DNA from: Streptomyces halobius
Lineage (GTDB): Bacteria > Actinomycetota > Actinomycetes > Streptomycetales > Streptomycetaceae
Length of the DNA: 64,000 nt
Direction of reading: 5' to 3'
Assembly: GCF_023277745.1 (NCBI RefSeq)
Contig: NZ_CP086322.1
Coordinates: forward strand, 5,208,001-5,272,000
Below the pieces are notes generated by a model that worked only from the letters and a program-made list of their open reading frames with translations, was not told the DNA's origin and did not search any database. The position numbers were made by a program, and so were the translations under genes. Below, in pieces: positions 1,458 through 44,273 of this stretch (positions are counted from its first letter, which is position 1; each line of letters starts with the position of its first letter).

Positions 1458-3116
1458 ATGGTGCGTGCGAGGCATGGGCGGTGGTCGGTACGTGGCGGGC
1501 GGCGGGTACGCGGCCGGCGGCCCTTACATGGACGTCGGCTGGTGGACGGACGACGGCCGGTCCGCGGGAGGCGGCTGCGGGCGGGAGCGGTGGCGTTCGG
1601 TGTGGCGGCGGCCGTGGCGATGGGGACGGCAGGCGCCGCCTCCGGGGCCACCGCGCCCGGAGCCCCCGACGCCTCTGGAACCGCCGTGGCGTCCGGCCGG
1701 GCACCGTCCGCCGAACCCCTGGCGCCCGAGCTGGAGAAGATTCGGGCGCAGGAGGCCGTCAAGCTGTACGGCGCCCCGGGTGAGCGGCCGATCGACGAGC
1801 GCAAGACCGCGTTGATCTCGCTGGGCGACAGCGAGATCTCGGGCGAGGGCGTCGGCACGTACGAGCCGGGGACCGACGGGCCCGACAACTGGTGCCACCG
1901 GTCGCCCGACGCGGCGATTCACCGCACCGGGATCGCGGCGGAGGTGACCTACAACGTCGCCTGCTCGGGCGCGTACACCGGGAACATCGTGATCGGTGGG
2001 ACCAAGCAGTACGCGGACGAGCTGGTGCAGAGCGACAGCCTGGCCATCGCGGCACGTAACACCAAGCTGAAGATGGTGCTGCTGGTGGCGGGGGCCAATG
2101 ACGATCTGCAGTTCGGGCCGGTGATGACGGACTGCGTGACGCGATGGTTCCTGTTCCAAGGCACCTGCGAGCCGAAGTACCGGCCGGGGTGGCAGGCGCG
2201 GGTCGACGGGCTGGTCCCGAAGGTCGAGCGGACGGTGCACGACCTGCGGACGGTGATGCGGGACGCGGGCTACGCGGACGGCGACTACCGGCTCGTGGTG
2301 ATGTCGTATCCGAGTCCGATCGGGCCGGATGTGGAGGACAACCCGGACTTCCCCGGGAAGCTGCCGGGCGGCTGCACGGGCTACACCTCTGACGCGGGCT
2401 GGGGACGTAACGCGGCCGTGCCGGCCTTCGAGCGGGGCATACGGAAGGTCGCCCAGGAAACCGGCGCCACCTATCTCGACGCCTCGCGGCTCTTCCACGG
2501 GCACGAGGTGTGCATGGAGGCGACCTGGGCCCGCGGCCTGTACGTCGATGTCGCCAACCCCTTCCCGCCGGATGCCAATTCCGTACGCCAGTCCTTCCAC
2601 CCCAACGCCGCGGGCCACGGCGCCTTCGCGACCTGTCTCACCCAGCTCTACGCGGCGCCGGGGCTGCGCGAGGCGTCCTGCGCGGATCCGGCGAGCACCG
2701 GACGGCCGAAGCTGTACGCCGGGGCCTGGGACGATGCGTACCGACCGCTGAAGAACGCGGGCACGGGCAGCTGTGTGGACGCGGCCGGCGGCGGCACCCG
2801 GAACGGCACGGTGGTCGGCGGCTGGGACTGCACCGGGCAGCGCCATCAGAGCTGGTGGTACGACCCGGAGCAGCGGTCGGTGCATAGCGAGCTGACCCAG
2901 GACCGGTGCCTGGACGTGCCGGAGGGGCGCTATGAGCCGGGCGTCGGCCTGGTGCTGTGGAACTGCTCGGGCGCGGCCAACCAGCAGTTCGTGCGGGCGG
3001 ACGGCGGTACGGTCCGGCCGGCCGTCGCGCAGTCGCTGTGCCTGACGCTGGCCTCGACGAAGGACGCGCTGCGGCTTCAGCCCTGTGATGGCTCGGATAC
3101 GCAGCGTTTCACGTGA
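1458..3116 (+). CDS. Secreted SGNH/GDSL hydrolase with C-terminal ricin-B lectin domain
   Basis: A predicted extracellular esterase/lipase of the SGNH superfamily, 552 residues. The catalytic blocks are GDSEISGEG with the nucleophile Ser near residue 125 (block I), GAND near 212-215 (block III) and HPNAAGH near 381 (block V, catalytic His). Residues from about 431 to the end form a ricin-B/CBM13-like beta-trefoil with QxW-like positions, suggesting carbohydrate binding. The N-terminus is odd: about 41 residues with 17 arginines in repeated GRR units precede the hydrophobic stretch at about 42-65, so export may use the Tat route. A GGAGGG site lies 9 nt before the ATG. The stop codon lies inside a parS site. 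Substrate unknown. Confidence 0.88.
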   Translation: MVRARHGRWSVRGGRRVRGRRPLHGRRLVDGRRPVRGRRLRAGAVAFGVAAAVAMGTAGAASGATAPGAPDASGTAVASGRAPSAEPLAPELEKIRAQEAVKLYGAPGERPIDERKTALISLGDSEISGEGVGTYEPGTDGPDNWCHRSPDAAIHRTGIAAEVTYNVACSGAYTGNIVIGGTKQYADELVQSDSLAIAARNTKLKMVLLVAGANDDLQFGPVMTDCVTRWFLFQGTCEPKYRPGWQARVDGLVPKVERTVHDLRTVMRDAGYADGDYRLVVMSYPSPIGPDVEDNPDFPGKLPGGCTGYTSDAGWGRNAAVPAFERGIRKVAQETGATYLDASRLFHGHEVCMEATWARGLYVDVANPFPPDANSVRQSFHPNAAGHGAFATCLTQLYAAPGLREASCADPASTGRPKLYAGAWDDAYRPLKNAGTGSCVDAAGGGTRNGTVVGGWDCTGQRHQSWWYDPEQRSVHSELTQDRCLDVPEGRYEPGVGLVLWNCSGAANQQFVRADGGTVRPAVAQSLCLTLASTKDALRLQPCDGSDTQRFT

Positions 3117-3380: not shown

Positions 3381-3450
3381 CCGTACGCAGACATGGAAGG
3401 GCCCCGCTCCGAGCAATGCCGGAGCAGGGCCCTTCCATGTCTGCGTACGG
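3381..3450. terminator. Bidirectional terminator with a 30-bp stem
   Basis: Arms 3381-3410 and 3421-3450 are complementary over 30 bp with a single mismatch, around a 10-nt loop. It lies between two convergent genes (SGNH hydrolase, Yip1 protein) and begins only 3 nt beyond the Yip1 stop, so it should end transcription from both sides. Confidence 0.85.
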
Positions 3451-25353: not shown

Positions 25354-25896
25354 ATGAGCGACGACGTACGTGGCGATCTGCTGCAGCAGATCAAGGACAA
25401 GGCCGTGGTGCACGGCAAGGTGATTCTTTCGTCCGGCAAGGAGGCCGATTACTACATCGACCTGCGCCGGATCACCCTGGACGGCGAGGCATCGCCGCTG
25501 GTCGGTCAGCTGATGCTGGATATCACCGCCGATCTGGACTACGACGCGGTCGGCGGGCTGACGCTCGGCGCCGACCCGGTCGCGACGTCGATGCTGCACG
25601 CCGCCGCCGCGCGGGGCCGGCGGCTGGACGCGTTTGTCGTCCGCAAGGCGCAGAAGACGCACGGTATGCAGCGCCGTATCGAGGGGCCGGACATCAAGGG
25701 CCGCCGGGTGCTGATCGTGGAGGACACCTCCACCACCGGCGGTTCCCCGCTGACCGCCGTCGAGGCGGCGCGCGAGGCAGGTGCCGAGGTCGTCGCGGTC
25801 GCCACGATCGTCGACCGCGGCGCCGCGTCGGCCATCGCCGAAGCGGGCGTGCCGTACATCACCGGTTTCCAGCTCGGTGACCTCGGTCTGGCCTGA
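25354..25896 (+). CDS. pyrE: Orotate phosphoribosyltransferase
   Basis: Converts orotate and PRPP to OMP in pyrimidine synthesis. The product has 180 residues. Visible are the SGKEADYYIDLRR orotate/PRPP contact segment (about 26-38), the mobile-loop basic residues in VVRKAQKTHG, and the PRPP motif VLIVEDTSTTGG (about 117-128). ATG 25354 is chosen; the frame stays open upstream only because it overlaps the epimerase gene in another frame. It lies 10 nt after the epimerase gene and is followed by the 40-bp parS palindrome that may also end its transcript. Confidence 0.93.
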   Translation: MSDDVRGDLLQQIKDKAVVHGKVILSSGKEADYYIDLRRITLDGEASPLVGQLMLDITADLDYDAVGGLTLGADPVATSMLHAAAARGRRLDAFVVRKAQKTHGMQRRIEGPDIKGRRVLIVEDTSTTGGSPLTAVEAAREAGAEVVAVATIVDRGAASAIAEAGVPYITGFQLGDLGLA

Positions 25897-26042
25897 CCGC
25901 AGCCGGTTGTGATCGCGGCTTCGGGTGAGCGCGGCCCGGCTTGGCCGGTGCACGACGGAGCTGATCGCGCTGTGAGGGAAGCTGCCAAGTCGTGACGTCG
26001 TCCTCGCCGCTTTGCGCAGATCGAGCTGACCTGGGGCTTTCT

Positions 26043-26082
26043 CGAAGTGGGGTTGGTTTCACGTGAAACCAACCCCACTTCG
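26043..26082. other. parS site 2 within a perfect 40-bp palindrome
   Basis: The core GTTTCACGTGAAAC (26056-26069) is an exact parS. The palindrome continues perfectly for 13 bp on each side (arms 26043-26062 and 26063-26082). It lies between pyrE (ends 25896) and fba (starts 26206). As RNA it could fold into a long hairpin and serve as a pyrE terminator; as DNA it is a ParB site. Confidence 0.93.
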
Positions 26083-26205
26083 CGCAGGGCCGGCGTGCGG
26101 GCGATGTGGAGCAATCCGGCAAGTCTGGGAAGATGGGCCCGGCGAAGTCGTCGCCCCCTGGTCAGGGCCAAGCACGCACACCCCGCACACACAAGGAGCG
26201 GACAG

Positions 26206-27228
26206 ATGCCCATCGCAACTCCCGAGGTCTACAACGAGATGCTGGACCGGGCGAAGGCAGGCAAGTTCGCCTACCCGGCCATCAACGTGACTTCGACCCA
26301 GACCCTGCACGCCGCGCTGCGTGGCTTCGCGGAGGCCGAGAGCGACGGCATCATCCAGATCTCCACCGGTGGTGCGGAGTTCCTGGGCGGCCAGTACAAC
26401 AAGGACATGGTCAGCGGTGCCGTGGCGCTGGCGGAGTTCGCGCACATCGTCGCCAAGAAGTACGACATCAACGTCGCGCTGCACACCGACCACTGCCCCA
26501 AGGACAAGCTGGACGGCTACGTCCGCCCGCTGCTGGACATCTCCGCCGAGCGCGTCGCCAAGGGCGAGAACCCGCTGTTCCAGTCGCACATGTGGGACGG
26601 CTCGGCCGAGAACCTTGCCGACAACCTGGCCATCGGCCAGGAGCTGCTCGCCAAGGCCGCCGCCGCCAAGATCATCCTTGAGGTCGAGATCACCCCGACC
26701 GGCGGCGAAGAGGACGGCGTCAGCCACGAGATCAACGACGAGCTCTACACCACGGTCGACGACGCGCTGCGTACCGCCGAGGCGCTGGGCCTGGGCGAGA
26801 AGGGGCGCTACCTGCTCGCCGCGTCCTTCGGCAACGTCCACGGCGTCTACAAGCCGGGCAATGTCGTGCTCCGCCCCGAGCTGCTGAAGGACCTCCAGGA
26901 GGGCGTCGGAGCCAAGCACGGCAAGGCCGCCCCGTTCGACTTCGTCTTCCACGGCGGCTCCGGCTCCACCGAGCAGGAGATCGCCACCGCGCTGGAGAAC
27001 GGCGTGGTCAAGATGAACCTGGACACCGACACCCAGTACGCCTTCACCCGCCCGGTCGCGGACCACATGTTCCGTAACTACGACGGTGTCCTGAAGGTGG
27101 ACGGCGAGGTCGGCAACAAGAAGACCTACGACCCGCGCAGCTGGGGCAAGCTGGCCGAGGCGGGCATGGCCAAGCGGGTCACGGAGGCTTGCGCGAACCT
27201 CCGCTCCACCGGGACCAAGCTCAAGTAG
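26206..27228 (+). CDS. fba: Fructose-bisphosphate aldolase, class II
   Basis: Cleaves fructose-1,6-bisphosphate to dihydroxyacetone phosphate and glyceraldehyde-3-phosphate (glycolysis and gluconeogenesis). The product has 340 residues. Zinc and substrate motifs: HTDHCPKDKLDGY (metal-binding His and the adjacent Asp/His), LEVEITPTGGEEDGV, SFGNVHGVYKPGNV, and FHGGSGSTEQE. ATG 26206 lies behind an AAGGAG site at 26193-26198. The codon use is highly biased, as expected for an abundant enzyme. It has its own upstream region of about 120 nt after the parS palindrome. A dispersed-repeat cluster begins 2 nt after its stop codon. Confidence 0.96.
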   Translation: MPIATPEVYNEMLDRAKAGKFAYPAINVTSTQTLHAALRGFAEAESDGIIQISTGGAEFLGGQYNKDMVSGAVALAEFAHIVAKKYDINVALHTDHCPKDKLDGYVRPLLDISAERVAKGENPLFQSHMWDGSAENLADNLAIGQELLAKAAAAKIILEVEITPTGGEEDGVSHEINDELYTTVDDALRTAEALGLGEKGRYLLAASFGNVHGVYKPGNVVLRPELLKDLQEGVGAKHGKAAPFDFVFHGGSGSTEQEIATALENGVVKMNLDTDTQYAFTRPVADHMFRNYDGVLKVDGEVGNKKTYDPRSWGKLAEAGMAKRVTEACANLRSTGTKLK

Positions 27229-29127: not shown

Positions 29128-30409
29128 GTCCCCCGGAACCCCTGAGCCGGCCGAGGCCCCGTCCCCCGACGTCGAGGCACAGGCCGCCCAACAGGTCGCG
29201 CACGCACGGCGGTTGGACACCGATGACCCGCTCGCCGCGCTGCGCGACCGCTTCACCCTCGACGACGTCACCTACCTCGACGGCAACTCGCTCGGCGCCC
29301 TGCCCCGTGCCGTGCCCGGCCGGATCGCCGATGTCATCGCCCGCGAATGGGGCGAGCTGCGCATCCGGTCCTGGACCGAATCCGGCTGGTGGACCGCGCC
29401 CGAGCGGATCGGCGACAAGATCGCGCCGCTGATCGGGGCGGCGCCCGGCCGGGTCGTGGTCGGCGACTCCACCAGCGTCAATGTCTTCAAGGCCGTGGTC
29501 GGCGGCATCCGGATGGCCGGGAAGGGCTGTACGGAGATCCTGGTCGATGCGACGACCTTCCCGACCGACGGCTATATCGCCCGGTCCGCGGCCCGGATGA
29601 CCGGCCTCGCGGTGCGGCCTGTCGAGCCTGCGCGGATCTCCGACGAGGTCACCGAGCGGACCGCGCTCGCGCTGGTCAACCATGTCGACTACCGCACCGG
29701 AGCGCTCAACGATCTGCCCGGCATCACCCACGCCCTGCACTCCGCCGGCGCGCTTGCCGTCTGGGACCTGTGCCACAGCGCGGGCGCCCTGCCGGTGGGG
29801 CTGGACGCGCACCATGTCGACCTCGCCGTCGGCTGCACCTACAAGTACCTGAACGGCGGCCCGGGTTCGCCCGCGTATCTCTACATCCGCGAGAGCCTCC
29901 AGAACCGGTTCGAGTCACCGCTGCCCGGCTGGAACTCACACGCCGAACCGTTCGGCATGGACCCCAACTACACCCCCGCCGACGGCATCGTGCGCGGCCG
30001 GGTCGGTACCCCCGACATCCTGTCGCTGCTCGCACTGGAGGCGGCGCTGGACGTCTGGGAGGACGTCTCCATCGAGGACGTACGCACCAAGAGCCTCGCC
30101 CTGACCGACTTCTTCCTCGACTGTGTGGCCCTGTACGCGCCGCCCGGCCGGGTCCGTTCGGTCACGCCGTACGACCACAGGCGGCGCGGCAGCCAGGTGT
30201 CGTTGGAGTGCTCGCGGGCCGGCGGCGTGATGGACGGGCTGATCCGGCGCGGGGTGGTCGGCGACTTCCGGGAGCCGGATGTGCTGCGGTTCGGCTTCAC
30301 CCCGCTCTACACCTCCTTCGTGGACGCGGAGCGGGCGGCACGGGTGCTCGGCGAGGTGCTGCGGGAGCTGCCCGAGGAGCAGCCGGAGCCGGCCGGGGAC
30401 GGCGGGTGA
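29120..30409 (+). CDS. kynU: Kynureninase
   Basis: PLP enzyme cleaving kynurenine to anthranilate and alanine; 429 residues, fold type I. Motifs: YLDGNSLGALPR near residues 53-64, VGDSTSVNVFK, WDLCHSAGALPVGL with the Asp pairing PLP, and CTYKYLNGGPGSP with the PLP Lys (about 238). The start ATG 29120 lies within the last codons of the dioxygenase gene (8-nt overlap), and its stop overlaps the next gene as GTGA, so all three genes are translationally coupled. The frame is open further upstream, but only across the dioxygenase gene. Confidence 0.95.
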   Translation: MSESPGTPEPAEAPSPDVEAQAAQQVAHARRLDTDDPLAALRDRFTLDDVTYLDGNSLGALPRAVPGRIADVIAREWGELRIRSWTESGWWTAPERIGDKIAPLIGAAPGRVVVGDSTSVNVFKAVVGGIRMAGKGCTEILVDATTFPTDGYIARSAARMTGLAVRPVEPARISDEVTERTALALVNHVDYRTGALNDLPGITHALHSAGALAVWDLCHSAGALPVGLDAHHVDLAVGCTYKYLNGGPGSPAYLYIRESLQNRFESPLPGWNSHAEPFGMDPNYTPADGIVRGRVGTPDILSLLALEAALDVWEDVSIEDVRTKSLALTDFFLDCVALYAPPGRVRSVTPYDHRRRGSQVSLECSRAGGVMDGLIRRGVVGDFREPDVLRFGFTPLYTSFVDAERAARVLGEVLRELPEEQPEPAGDGG

Positions 30410-31320
30410 GCGCATCGGACGAGGAGTCGGCGCTGCTGGGGCTCGCCCCGGTGGCGCCGGACCGGACGGTGGCGTACGGGCCGCATCCGGACCAGATCGT
30501 GGATCTGTACGAGCCGACGGGCGCGGGGCCCGGCAGCGGCGCGCGCCCGCTTGCCGTGCTGCTGCACGGAGGGTTCTGGCGCGCGGCCTACGACCGCCGT
30601 CATCTCTCGCCGTGCGCCGCCGAGCTGGCCCGGCACGGTCTGCCGGTAGCGCTGGCCGAGTACCGGCGGGTCGGCGCGGGCGGTGGCGCACCACGGACGT
30701 TCGAGGATGTGACGGCGGCCATCGAGGCGGCACGAGCAGAGTTTCACGTGAAACAGTTTCACGTGAAACATCGCCCAGTGACGGCACCTGCGGCCGGGGA
30801 CGAGCGGGCGGCACCCGGCGGCCTCGTCCTCGTCGGGCACTCGGCGGGCGGCCATCTCGCGCTGCTCGCCGCTGCCCGCCCCGGCACCCCGGTGACGCGT
30901 GTCCTCGCCGTCTCACCGGTCGCCGACCTCGCCCGCGCCCACGAGCTGGAGCTGAGCGAGGGCGCGGTCGCCGAGCTGGTGGACGCCAGGGGCGGGGATG
31001 CTGTCGACGCCGGAGACGGGGACGCCGGCGACGACGGGGAAGGGGACGCTGTCGGCACCGGGGAGGCGGACGCGCCCGCCCTCGCCGCCAGGATCGCCGC
31101 GGCCGATCCGATGTGCCACCCCTTGCCCGCCGACCTCCCCGTCACCCTCCTGCACGGCACCGACGACGCCGACGTCCCCCTGGAGATCTCCCGTCGCTAC
31201 GCCGCCGCCCACCCCAGCGCCACGACGCTCTTCGAGCTCCGCGGCGTCGGCCACTACGCCACCGTCACCCCGGGCACCCCGGCCTTCCGTACCCTCCTCG
31301 CGGCCCTGCTCGACGAGTGA
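30406..31320 (+). CDS. Alpha/beta hydrolase, probable kynurenine formamidase
   Basis: 304 residues. Motifs: HGGFWRAAYDRR (oxyanion hole), GHSAGGHLAL (nucleophile Ser), HGTDDADVPLEI (Asp) and GVGHYATV (His). Its place after the dioxygenase and kynureninase genes indicates the missing step, N-formylkynurenine to kynurenine. GTG 30406 overlaps the kynureninase stop (GTGA). Two insertions are unusual. Residues about 113-121 (FHVKQFHVK) are encoded by two tandem parS sites. An acidic Gly/Asp/Ala-rich stretch (about 195-222) interrupts the usual fold. Both lie where loops are expected, so activity is probably kept. Confidence 0.88.
   Translation: MSASDEESALLGLAPVAPDRTVAYGPHPDQIVDLYEPTGAGPGSGARPLAVLLHGGFWRAAYDRRHLSPCAAELARHGLPVALAEYRRVGAGGGAPRTFEDVTAAIEAARAEFHVKQFHVKHRPVTAPAAGDERAAPGGLVLVGHSAGGHLALLAAARPGTPVTRVLAVSPVADLARAHELELSEGAVAELVDARGGDAVDAGDGDAGDDGEGDAVGTGEADAPALAARIAAADPMCHPLPADLPVTLLHGTDDADVPLEISRRYAAAHPSATTLFELRGVGHYATVTPGTPAFRTLLAALLDE
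30741..30754. other. parS site 3 (first of a tandem pair)
   Basis: Exact GTTTCACGTGAAAC inside the hydrolase coding sequence, one base before parS site 4. Read in frame it specifies part of EFHVKQ. Confidence 0.92.
30756..30769. other. parS site 4 (second of a tandem pair)
   Basis: Exact GTTTCACGTGAAAC, 15 nt after the start of parS site 3, so the pair repeats with a period that keeps the reading frame (FHVKQ then FHVKH). Confidence 0.92.
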
Positions 31321-42311: not shown

Positions 42312-44273
42312 CTACTCCGCCCTGGAGTACGTCCGCGGCTGCTTGTCCCCGCCCAGGAACTCGCGCCGCAGCGTTCCGTCCTCGTGGAGACGGAAGACGG
42401 ACGGGCTGCTCGGGGCGCAGCCGGGGGCGGCCCTGTCGATGACCGAGGGGCCGACGGTCAGTTTTCCCTCGGCCGAGTAGAGGTCGGCGTGCGCGGTGCA
42501 GCGGCCGTTGGGGCCGTCGACGACCGCGGTCAGTACCCGGCTGCCGACCGGGGCCCGCTTGACGGTGAGGCGGTGGGAGCTGCCATTGGCGGTCGATCGC
42601 TGCCAGGTGCCGAGGTATGCGGACGGGACCGTCTCGGCGGTGGCGCTCAGGCGGTGCAGTGTCGCGGTGCGGCCTGCCGCCGCCCACTTCAGGGTGTTGC
42701 CGTTGCCCGGTTCCAGGGTGTGCTCCCCGAGCGCGGAGCAGCGGCCGGCCGGGACCGATGCCACGACCTTGGTGTCGAGGCGCAGTGCGGGGCGGCCGTC
42801 GCCCGCCGTGACGGAGACCAGTTTGCCGTCGCTCTTGCACTCGTACGTCCTGCCGAGGCTGGTGCTGTTCGCGACCACTTCGCCGACCTTGCCGTGCGAG
42901 ATCACGAACCGGCGCTGCTGCCCCGTGGGCGTGCCGTCGCGCAGGACGGGGCCCGACCATGTGCCGACGTAGCGGGCGGAGATGTCGGAGGAGCGGTCAG
43001 CGCCGCCGGAGTTGCCTGAGTCGTCGTTCGCGCCGGTCAGGAGAGGCACCGCGATGGCGGTTGCGGTGGCGGCGGCGACGGCCGTGACGAGGAGGGGAAG
43101 CCAGCGGCGGCGGGGAGGGGAGGGCGGCGGACCCGCCGGGGACGGTGAGGCGTGGGCCGGTGGGTGGGAGGGGGTGGTCTGCGGTTTGTTCGAGGACTTC
43201 GAGGGCGGCGTCGGGGGCGTCTCGGGTGTTGTTTCACGTGAAACGGCCTCTGGGGAACTGGGGTTGGGCCGTGCCATCAGCGTCGTCGTGCCCGTCCTGC
43301 CCGCCGTCGGCGGGTGCCCGCCGGGCGGGGTGTCCGTGTCCAGGAGGCGTACGGCGTGCTGGCCCAGGCTTGCGATCAGCTCGGCCGGCAGCCACGGGGC
43401 CGTCGACCCGCCGCTGTTCACCGGACCGAACCGGTCCACGATCCGGCCCACGACCTCCTCGGGCGCGGGCCGCGCCGCCGGGTCCTTGGCCAGGCAACCC
43501 TCGATCAGCCCCCGGATTCCCTCCGGCGCGTCGGCCAGATCCGGCGGGTCCTGCGCGATCCGGAACATCACCGCATGCACGCCCGACGCCACGCTGCCGA
43601 ACGGCGTCCGCCCGGTCGCCGCGTACGCGAGCACCGATCCGACACAGAAGACATCGCTGGCCGGGCCGACGCGATGGCCCTGCACCTGCTCGGGCGACAT
43701 GAAGCTGGGCGAGCCGACGACCATGCCGGCACGGGTCTGGGTCTGGTCGCCGACCGCGTCCAGGGCGCGTGCGATGCCGAAGTCGATGACGCGGGGCCCG
43801 TCGATGGTGAGCAGGACGTTGGACGGCTTGAGGTCGCGGTGCACCAGGCCGACGCCGTGGATGTCGCGCAGGGCGCAGGCGAGGCCGTAGGCGAGGTGCC
43901 GCAGCGAGTGCTCGGGGAGCGCGCCGTAGGTGCCGGCCCGGCCGTACGATCCGCCGACGACCGCGCTGAGCGCGGGGCCCGCGATGTATCCGGTGGCGAC
44001 CCACGGGACGTCGGCCTCGGTGTCGGCGTCCAGGACGGGCGCGGTCCACTGGCCGCCGACCCGGCGCGCGGCCGCCACCTCGGCCCGGAAGCGGTCCCGG
44101 AACTCCTCCTCGGCGGCCAGCTCGGCCTTCACCAGTTTCACGGCGACGGTCCGGCCGCCCTCGGAACGGGCGAGGTAGACCCGGCCCATCCCGCCGCTGC
44201 CGAGGCGGCTGAGCAGCCGGTAGTCCCCGATCCACGGTGGATCGTCGGCCGTCAGTCCGCGCAGGCCCTCCAT
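42312..44273 (-). CDS. Transmembrane Ser/Thr protein kinase (PknB-like)
   Basis: 653 residues. Kinase domain at about 15-275: glycine loop LGSGGMGRVYLA, VAVKLVKAE with the ATP Lys, catalytic loop HRDLKPSNVLL, DFGIA and SPSFMSPEQ. A Ser/Pro/Thr-rich linker (about 300-390) holds the residues VSRET encoded by parS site 5. One transmembrane helix lies at about 393-415, and an extracellular part of about 230 residues with two WSG/WQR-type repeated beta segments (YVGTWSG, YLGTWQR) may be a sensor. Extracellular PASTA repeats are absent. The ligand and phosphorylation targets are unknown. Confidence 0.9.
   Translation of the reverse strand: MEGLRGLTADDPPWIGDYRLLSRLGSGGMGRVYLARSEGGRTVAVKLVKAELAAEEEFRDRFRAEVAAARRVGGQWTAPVLDADTEADVPWVATGYIAGPALSAVVGGSYGRAGTYGALPEHSLRHLAYGLACALRDIHGVGLVHRDLKPSNVLLTIDGPRVIDFGIARALDAVGDQTQTRAGMVVGSPSFMSPEQVQGHRVGPASDVFCVGSVLAYAATGRTPFGSVASGVHAVMFRIAQDPPDLADAPEGIRGLIEGCLAKDPAARPAPEEVVGRIVDRFGPVNSGGSTAPWLPAELIASLGQHAVRLLDTDTPPGGHPPTAGRTGTTTLMARPNPSSPEAVSRETTPETPPTPPSKSSNKPQTTPSHPPAHASPSPAGPPPSPPRRRWLPLLVTAVAAATATAIAVPLLTGANDDSGNSGGADRSSDISARYVGTWSGPVLRDGTPTGQQRRFVISHGKVGEVVANSTSLGRTYECKSDGKLVSVTAGDGRPALRLDTKVVASVPAGRCSALGEHTLEPGNGNTLKWAAAGRTATLHRLSATAETVPSAYLGTWQRSTANGSSHRLTVKRAPVGSRVLTAVVDGPNGRCTAHADLYSAEGKLTVGPSVIDRAAPGCAPSSPSVFRLHEDGTLRREFLGGDKQPRTYSRAE
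43231..43244. other. parS site 5
   Basis: Exact GTTTCACGTGAAAC within the Pro/Thr-rich linker of the Ser/Thr kinase gene, where the minus strand encodes VSRET. Confidence 0.92.

What the first reader, a model, noticed from the sequence alone, without database searches (positions are those of the whole stretch)
26043..26082. parS inside a perfect 40-bp palindrome between pyrE and fba
The 14-bp parS core is extended without mismatch for 13 bp each side. This is far more symmetry than ParB needs. It may serve both as ParB site and as a pyrE terminator hairpin, joining transcription termination to segregation. Long perfect palindromes are usually unstable, so its retention suggests selection or a recent origin.
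Basis: partly seen in the sequence, partly recalled or inferred. Interest (0 to 1): 0.75.

Follow-up and report, generated by a model that had tools for sequence, protein, structure and literature searches.

The report
Centromere site inside terminator-like hairpin
In Streptomyces, some of the short DNA sites that mark chromosomes for segregation sit at the tip of gene-end hairpins whose arms change from species to species while staying self-complementary, which suggests that one small sequence does two jobs: chromosome segregation and ending a gene's transcript.

Summary
It is neither unique nor recent. A parS lies just upstream of fba in 74 of 109 sampled loci. In 57 of the 72 with a single parS it is the apex of a hairpin whose arms differ between species but stay complementary (85 inferred double compensatory changes on a tree; 4-8 in control pairings). 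At the five inner arm positions, changes away from pairing favour G-U over A-C on the pyrE-sense strand (16 v 3; not at positions 6-10), and the stem end carries a T/CGT tail on that strand. This points to an RNA hairpin ending the pyrE transcript, probably a U-poor terminator. Four relatives kept the arms although the core changed. The design recurs: 29 of 162 parS in seven genomes have perfect arms of at least 5 bp (1.5 expected), none of 21 inside genes. Two sites beside the tRNA nucleotidyltransferase gene, between convergent genes, reach 24-bp arms without significant strand bias. I conclude that these parS double as apices of gene-end hairpins. Termination and any coupling to ParB are untested. 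Seven literature searches found no report.

The parts
26056..26069 (.). parS core GTTTCACGTGAAAC
   Evidence: exact 14-bp match; 35 exact copies in the genome, spread over about 400 kb around dnaA/parB
26043..26055 (+). 5' arm of the hairpin (CGAAGTGGGGTTG)
   Evidence: perfectly complementary to 26070-26082; sequence varies but pairing is kept in most relatives
26070..26082 (+). 3' arm of the hairpin (CAACCCCACTTCG)
   Evidence: as above; RNA fold of 26036-26092 + strand -38.8 kcal/mol, z -8.3
26027..26033 (+). TGACCTG, conserved block starting 29 nt before the core; function unknown
   Evidence: column counts in 63 non-redundant loci: T44 G44 A41 C48 C51 T44 G46
26037..26040 (+). short T-rich stretch before the 5' arm (CTTT here); T is the commonest base at -19 to -16 in relatives
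   Evidence: column counts
   Evidence: Pfam Pribosyltran; stop 159 nt before the core
26206..27228 (+). fba, class II fructose-bisphosphate aldolase, downstream gene
   Evidence: Pfam F_bP_aldolase E 1e-75

Best explanation
This is a dual-use element: a ParB-binding parS whose palindromic 14-bp core also forms the apex (5-bp stem and ACGU tetraloop) of an RNA hairpin at the 3' end of the pyrE transcript. The core is held constant by ParB. The arms are held mainly to base-pairing rather than to one sequence, by selection on the RNA hairpin, most likely as a U-poor (I-shaped) transcription terminator that insulates fba from pyrE read-through. The same architecture recurs at other gene ends of the origin region; between convergent genes it would work in both directions. 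Shown: the palindrome, conservation of position, compensatory evolution of the arms, G-U tolerance at the inner positions, a strand-specific tail, recurrence at gene ends, no case among 21 sites inside genes. Inferred: that the hairpin is transcribed, that it terminates (rather than only protects or processes 3' ends), and that ParB binds this site in the cell.
For: Of 110 loci (30 fetched, the window's own included, and 80 named loci) 109 have fba; within 300 nt upstream of it 72 have exactly one parS and 2 have several. In 63 non-redundant ones, arm positions 1-12 are Watson-Crick in 622 of 756 cells against a shuffle mean of 362 (max 400 of 500); 13-16 are only slightly above (91 v 69), 17-24 at chance (131 v 138). 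On a pyrE+fba tree of the 72 loci, 85 of 255 changes at positions 1-12 are WC-to-WC double changes, against 4-5 with mispaired arms and 8 of 427 at flank positions 17-28. At positions 1-5, 16 changes go WC to G-U and 3 WC to A-C (binomial p 0.004; flank control 19 v 24). T in the 8 nt around the stem end is 2.25 on the pyrE strand v 1.06 on the other; CGT near the stem end 23 of 51 v 0 of 49 hairpins; a CGT/T-rich motif marks 293 of 2,115 mapped S. griseus 3' ends (PMC8914203, section read). Four loci kept arms although the core changed (L040, L066, L124, L136). In seven genomes, perfect arms of 5 bp or more: 29 of 162 parS (shuffle mean 1.5, max 6 of 2000): convergent 16/49, co-directional 9/74, divergent 1/9, unclear 3/9, in genes 0/21. 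In the convergent gap next to a tRNA-nucleotidyltransferase-like gene, each of 67 anchored loci (of 70 fetched; 150 genomes matched) carries parS and 49 have a site with perfect arms of 8 bp or more (max 24); G-U v A-C is 13 v 24 and 22 v 29 there, no significant bias, as expected if both strands matter.
Against: No transcript data were available. The window copy has no U-tract and the terminator scan did not call it. The G-U bias is absent at arm positions 6-10 (7 v 9 events; and 14 inferred A-C-to-WC changes there v 1 G-U-to-WC, so A-C states were reconstructed at inner nodes), and in the seven-genome survey the 13 hairpin sites in co-directional gaps had 4 G-U v 7 A-C. Part of the T-tail contrast comes from the T-rich block upstream, which makes the other strand A-rich. 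The right-hand convergent hairpin shows little tail (1.28 and 0.73 T of 8). 15 of 72 loci keep the core without strong arms and 35 of 109 loci have no exact parS there, so neither part is essential. Double changes (85) outnumber single WC-to-G-U or A-C changes (53), which also fits palindrome-correcting mutation.
Confidence: 0.7

Rival explanations
1. Palindrome-correcting mutation without function: the palindromic parS core seeds hairpins in nascent DNA, and template switching copies one arm onto the other, producing perfect palindromes that drift.
For: Arms up to 24 bp are perfect (62-bp palindrome, L244). Double changes (85) outnumber single WC-to-G-U or A-C changes (53).
Against: Does not predict G-U over A-C at the inner positions of the pyrE site with no such bias at the convergent sites, the CGT/T tail on one strand, or arms kept where the core has changed. 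Absence in genes could be purifying selection on codons, so it is weak evidence. The mechanism may well supply the variation that selection then keeps.
Confidence: 0.15
2. DNA-level function: the arms extend the ParB site, bind a second dimeric protein, or form a cruciform used in segregation or condensin loading.
For: Perfect dyad symmetry around a known protein site; conserved position; arm positions 4-9 keep a G-rich 5' arm and C-rich 3' arm (about 0.6-1.5 bits).
Against: Arm positions 2-3 carry only 0.07-0.24 bits, and every position exchanges pair types. G-U tolerance with A-C avoidance at inner positions is an RNA sign. Most parS in the same genomes have no arms (133 of 162 below 5 bp).
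Confidence: 0.07
3. An RNA hairpin under selection that does not terminate: it protects the pyrE mRNA 3' end from exonucleases after Rho-dependent or processive 3' trimming, or is a leader element of fba.
For: U-poor tail in the window. Streptomyces Term-seq papers say that structured 3' ends without U-tract may be I-shaped terminators or Rho-dependent ends (PMC8269248 passages; PMC8914203 passages and one section).
Against: The CGT/T tail on the sense strand in relatives and the symmetric hairpins between convergent genes are what terminators look like.
Confidence: 0.2
4. Chance or a recent duplication in this strain only.
For: None found.
Against: The longest arm expected by chance is shorter; the arrangement occurs across the genus and in other genera of the family.
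Confidence: 0.01

Closest known systems
Chromosomal parS sites of Streptomyces (ParB sites around oriC)
   Same: Identical 14-bp core; origin-proximal, many copies per chromosome (mean 22.8 in 20 genomes, PMC8743542 passages; 16 in S. venezuelae with ChIP-seq, PMC4852455 passages).
   Different: The passages seen treat parS as the short site alone; extended covarying arms and a gene-end hairpin role are not mentioned in them.
U-poor ('I-shaped' or 'HS-U-lack') intrinsic terminators of GC-rich actinobacteria
   Same: GC-rich stem, 4-nt loop, position after a stop codon, weak T tail with CGT in relatives.
   Different: The apex is a fixed, protein-binding palindrome; the stem is often perfectly palindromic; termination not measured.
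Bidirectional terminators between convergent genes
   Same: Symmetric hairpins in the convergent gap next to a tRNA-nucleotidyltransferase-like gene, no significant G-U strand bias.
   Different: Centred on parS.
ParB regulation of genes next to parS (Pseudomonas aeruginosa parS3/parS4 repressing adjacent genes; PMC7022226 passage)
   Same: parS placed where it can affect transcription.
   Different: There the effect is at upstream regions; here the site is at transcript 3' ends and the proposed element is the RNA hairpin.

Membership tests
chromosomal parS | 14-bp palindrome GTTTCACGTGAAAC | tested here: met
   exact match at 26056-26069
chromosomal parS | one of a cluster near oriC in a genome with chromosomal parB | tested here: met
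   35 exact copies at C1:4848200-5251244; parB family gene at 4961485 and dnaA at 4967566. This copy is an outlying member about 265 kb from dnaA.
chromosomal parS | bound by ParB in vivo | not testable with these tools
   no ChIP data for this strain
intrinsic transcription terminator | stable GC-rich RNA hairpin shortly after a stop codon | tested here: met
   -38.8 kcal/mol, z -8.3; core 159 nt after the stop here, 26-97 nt in the 19 relatives scored (22 loci asked, 2 not scored)
intrinsic transcription terminator | U-rich tract after the stem | tested here: inconclusive
   absent in the window copy; on the pyrE strand of relatives mean T 2.25 of 8, and CGT near the stem end in 23 of 51
intrinsic transcription terminator | selection on RNA pairing on the transcribed strand | tested here: met
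   compensatory changes, and G-U over A-C at positions 1-5; the bias is not seen at positions 6-10
intrinsic transcription terminator | RNA 3' ends at the stem end, without Rho | not testable with these tools
   needs Term-seq or in vitro transcription
bidirectional terminator (convergent sites) | symmetric pairing without strand bias between convergent genes | tested here: met
   G-U v A-C 13 v 24 and 22 v 29, not significant; a tail on both strands only for the left hairpin

The most novel reading that the evidence does not exclude
Streptomyces has merged part of its centromere with its transcription terminators: ParB clamps are loaded exactly where RNA polymerase is made to stop, so that polymerases do not sweep ParB off its loading sites, and ParB bound at the apex may itself help stop polymerase, which would make read-through between neighbouring genes depend on the state of the segrosome during sporulation.
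Probability: 0.25. Interest if true: 0.85.

Novelty: new variant of a known kind. Interest (0 to 1): 0.66.

Why it matters
parS sites are normally described as short loading sites whose surroundings do not matter. Here a family of bacteria carries a share of its parS at the tips of fast-changing but paired gene-end hairpins. If the hairpins terminate, transcription ends and chromosome segregation share one sequence, which might help explain why streptomycetes carry so many parS and how they avoid collisions between RNA polymerase and ParB. It is directly testable with existing Term-seq and ParB ChIP-seq data and with simple arm-swap mutants in a laboratory strain.

Tried and rejected
Chance palindrome: rejected. 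Recent origin: rejected. A sequence-specific extended ParB site is unlikely because inner arm positions are not conserved, although positions 4-9 keep a G-rich 5' and C-rich 3' arm. A conserved TGACCTG block before the hairpin is reverse-complementary to an AGGTCA motif near fba; I could not tell whether this is a long-range stem and left it. The G-U test beyond arm position 12 is uninformative because background composition is already G-U rich (60 v 12 at positions 15-18, close to shuffles). The CGT/GCAT pattern was chosen after seeing the sequences; the CGT-only count uses the motif named in PMC8914203. Gene contexts come from my own codon-usage ORF caller, not from annotation, so single sites may be misclassified. 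The six extra genomes of the survey were picked by me from the 150 (mostly closed, from different branches), not at random; the 40 convergent loci were also picked by me, beside the 30 best. Some loci are the same genome under two names; near-identical rows were merged (72 to 63) and add no events on the tree. A few of the 109 loci are not Streptomyces (Actinacidiphila, Nonomuraea, an uncultured bacterium). In one search some pyrE stops were misplaced (e.g. L056, L104), so later counts use 300 nt upstream of fba; for those few loci the tree sequence may include part of the gap. The tree was the quick kind and parsimony gave one reconstruction. In one search, 3 of 70 loci (L241-L243) had no anchor and were dropped. 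I did not score hairpins systematically in loci without parS (folds seen). Literature: listings; passages of PMC8743542, PMC12511625, PMC12207404, PMC8269248, PMC8780764, PMC4852455, PMC7022226 and PMC8914203; one section of PMC8914203 read whole; a find in PMC6742748 gave no hits. None of what I saw mentions parS in terminators. The S. coelicolor parS paper of Jakimowicz 2002 was seen only as a reference.

Full report
OBSERVATION. Window 26043-26082 is exactly the palindrome described: 13-bp arms around GTTTCACGTGAAAC at 26056-26069. It is the longest spacerless perfect palindrome of the window (20 bp per half; next 10), and 20 Markov-1 simulated sequences never exceeded 12. It lies between a pyrE-like phosphoribosyltransferase gene (25354-25896) and fba (26206-27228), both on the + strand.

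GENOME. The window lies in a 9.24-Mb single-contig genome; the nearest named sequences of the pyrE-like protein are of Streptomyces piniterrae, S. natalensis and S. lydicus. The genome holds 35 exact parS between C1:4848200 and 5251244, with a parB family gene at 4961485-4962018 and dnaA at 4967566-4969326 (a second parB-family gene over the cut-off lies at 4303930). The pyrE-fba copy is an outlying member, about 265 kb from dnaA. Perfect extensions of other copies in this genome: 14 bp (L030, 25 nt after a pirin gene), 9 (L023), 8 (L024), 7 (L021), 5 (L016); the rest have 0-3. One tandem pair (L027) lies as a unit inside a single 49-bp inverted repeat with one central base.

RELATIVES AT pyrE-fba. 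I examined 110 loci: 30 (149 of 150 genus genomes matched, the own genome included; only the best 30 were fetched) and 80 named loci kept of 306 relatives; 109 contain fba. Within 300 nt of fba, 72 have exactly one exact parS, 2 have several, 35 have none. Arms differ widely between species, yet mostly remain complementary: 57 of the 72 have an arm score of at least 6, and 15 keep the core without strong arms. In 63 non-redundant loci, arm positions 1-12 are Watson-Crick paired in 622 of 756 cells, against a shuffle mean of 362 and maximum of 400 in 500; at positions 13-16 it is 91 v 69 (max 90), at 17-24 131 v 138. On a tree of pyrE and fba coding sequence, parsimony gives 85 double WC-to-WC changes among 255 events at positions 1-12, but 4-5 when arms are mispaired and 8 of 427 at flank positions 17-28.

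RNA OR DNA. On the pyrE-sense strand, changes from Watson-Crick to G-U outnumber those to A-C by 16 to 3 at positions 1-5 (p 0.004; flank control 19 to 24), but not at positions 6-10 (7 to 9, with 14 inferred changes from A-C back to Watson-Crick); over 1-12 it is 35 to 18. The 8 nt around the stem end hold 2.25 T on the pyrE strand and 1.06 on the other, and CGT lies near the stem end in 23 of 51 against 0 of 49. Part of the T contrast comes from a conserved T-rich block upstream. In S. griseus, 293 of 2,115 mapped transcript 3' ends share a GC stem followed by CGT with T-rich neighbours (PMC8914203, section read). The RNA of 26036-26092 folds at -38.8 kcal/mol, z -8.3. The window copy itself lacks a U-tract and was not called by the terminator scan.

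ARMS WITHOUT CORE. In L040, L066, L124 and L136 the core has one to three changes but the arms still pair; in L124 the two core changes are themselves symmetric. L094 has a one-mismatch core and no arms. Many loci without parS have a short gap, and the folds seen show no obvious hairpin of this kind there, but I did not score this systematically.

DEPTH. Of 20 regions upstream of fba from 16 other genera of the family, 11 (8 genera) contain an exact parS; three of these have perfect arms of 7 bp or more (L285, L296, L299).

GENERALITY. In seven genomes (the window's and six picked) I read 162 exact parS with flanks. Perfect arms of at least 5 bp occur in 29 (shuffled right flanks: mean 1.5, max 6 of 2000), of at least 8 bp in 19 (mean 0.5, max 3). 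By context: convergent 16 of 49, co-directional 9 of 74, divergent 1 of 9, unclear 3 of 9, inside genes 0 of 21. Convergent against in-gene is significant (p 0.002), against co-directional p 0.011, against divergent it is not (p 0.26), the sample being small. Contexts come from my own ORF caller.

CONVERGENT LOCUS. Next to a tRNA-nucleotidyltransferase-like gene (domains) I anchored 67 of 70 loci; each carries parS, 59 of them two. In 49 of 67 at least one site has perfect arms of 8 bp or more, the longest 24 bp, a 62-bp perfect palindrome in L244. Pairing exceeds every shuffle at arm positions 1-10 for both hairpins, and G-U against A-C is 13 to 24 and 22 to 29, without significant bias, as expected where both strands are transcribed. 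The left hairpin has T near the stem end in both directions (1.77 and 2.18 of 8); the right one less (1.28 and 0.73).

INTERPRETATION. The simplest account is that ParB fixes the core, while selection at the RNA level fixes the pairing more than the sequence of the arms, because the hairpin ends the upstream transcript. A palindromic protein site is a ready-made hairpin apex, so a parS just after a stop codon can become a terminator by extending its arms, and between convergent genes it serves both directions. Palindrome-correcting mutation may supply the perfect arms, but does not explain the strand-specific signs. Termination, as opposed to 3'-end protection, and any effect of ParB on it are inferences.

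LITERATURE. Searches (listings) and passages of PMC8743542, PMC12511625, PMC12207404, PMC4852455 and PMC7022226 gave no mention of parS at the centre of terminator hairpins. The library lacks most subscription papers; the 2002 S. coelicolor parS paper was seen only as a reference.

Noticed in passing
window 30741-30769: Two parS with a 15-bp period lie in frame inside an alpha/beta-hydrolase gene (30406-31320, read as FHVKQFHVKH). Two relatives match either side but have roughly 80 bp less there, so the pair may have come with an in-frame gain; the three-sequence alignment did not resolve its borders.
   Followed up: partly
window 43231-43244: An exact parS inside a protein kinase gene (42312-44273, minus strand), without arms.
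   Followed up: no
window 3381-3450: A 31-nt-arm, 97% complementary inverted repeat with an 8-nt loop and no parS, close to the parS at 3106.
   Followed up: no
window about 26110-26170, and the same place in relatives: A conserved stretch before fba (AGTCTGGRAAGATGG, a GC hairpin, then AGGTCAGGG) occurs in loci with and without parS, perhaps fba promoter and leader; the AGGTCA is reverse-complementary to the TGACCTG before the parS hairpin.
   Followed up: partly
L244 (G143:C1:116640-117190): 62-bp perfect palindrome around parS between convergent genes, the longest seen.
   Followed up: no
L027 (G000:C1:5044600-5046700), sites 1084 and 1099: Two parS one base apart, flanked as a unit by complementary 10-bp arms, forming one 49-bp inverted repeat after a stop codon.
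   Followed up: no
L067: Four parS at 24-bp spacing upstream of fba in Streptomyces sp. NRRL F-4489 instead of one parS in a hairpin.
   Followed up: no
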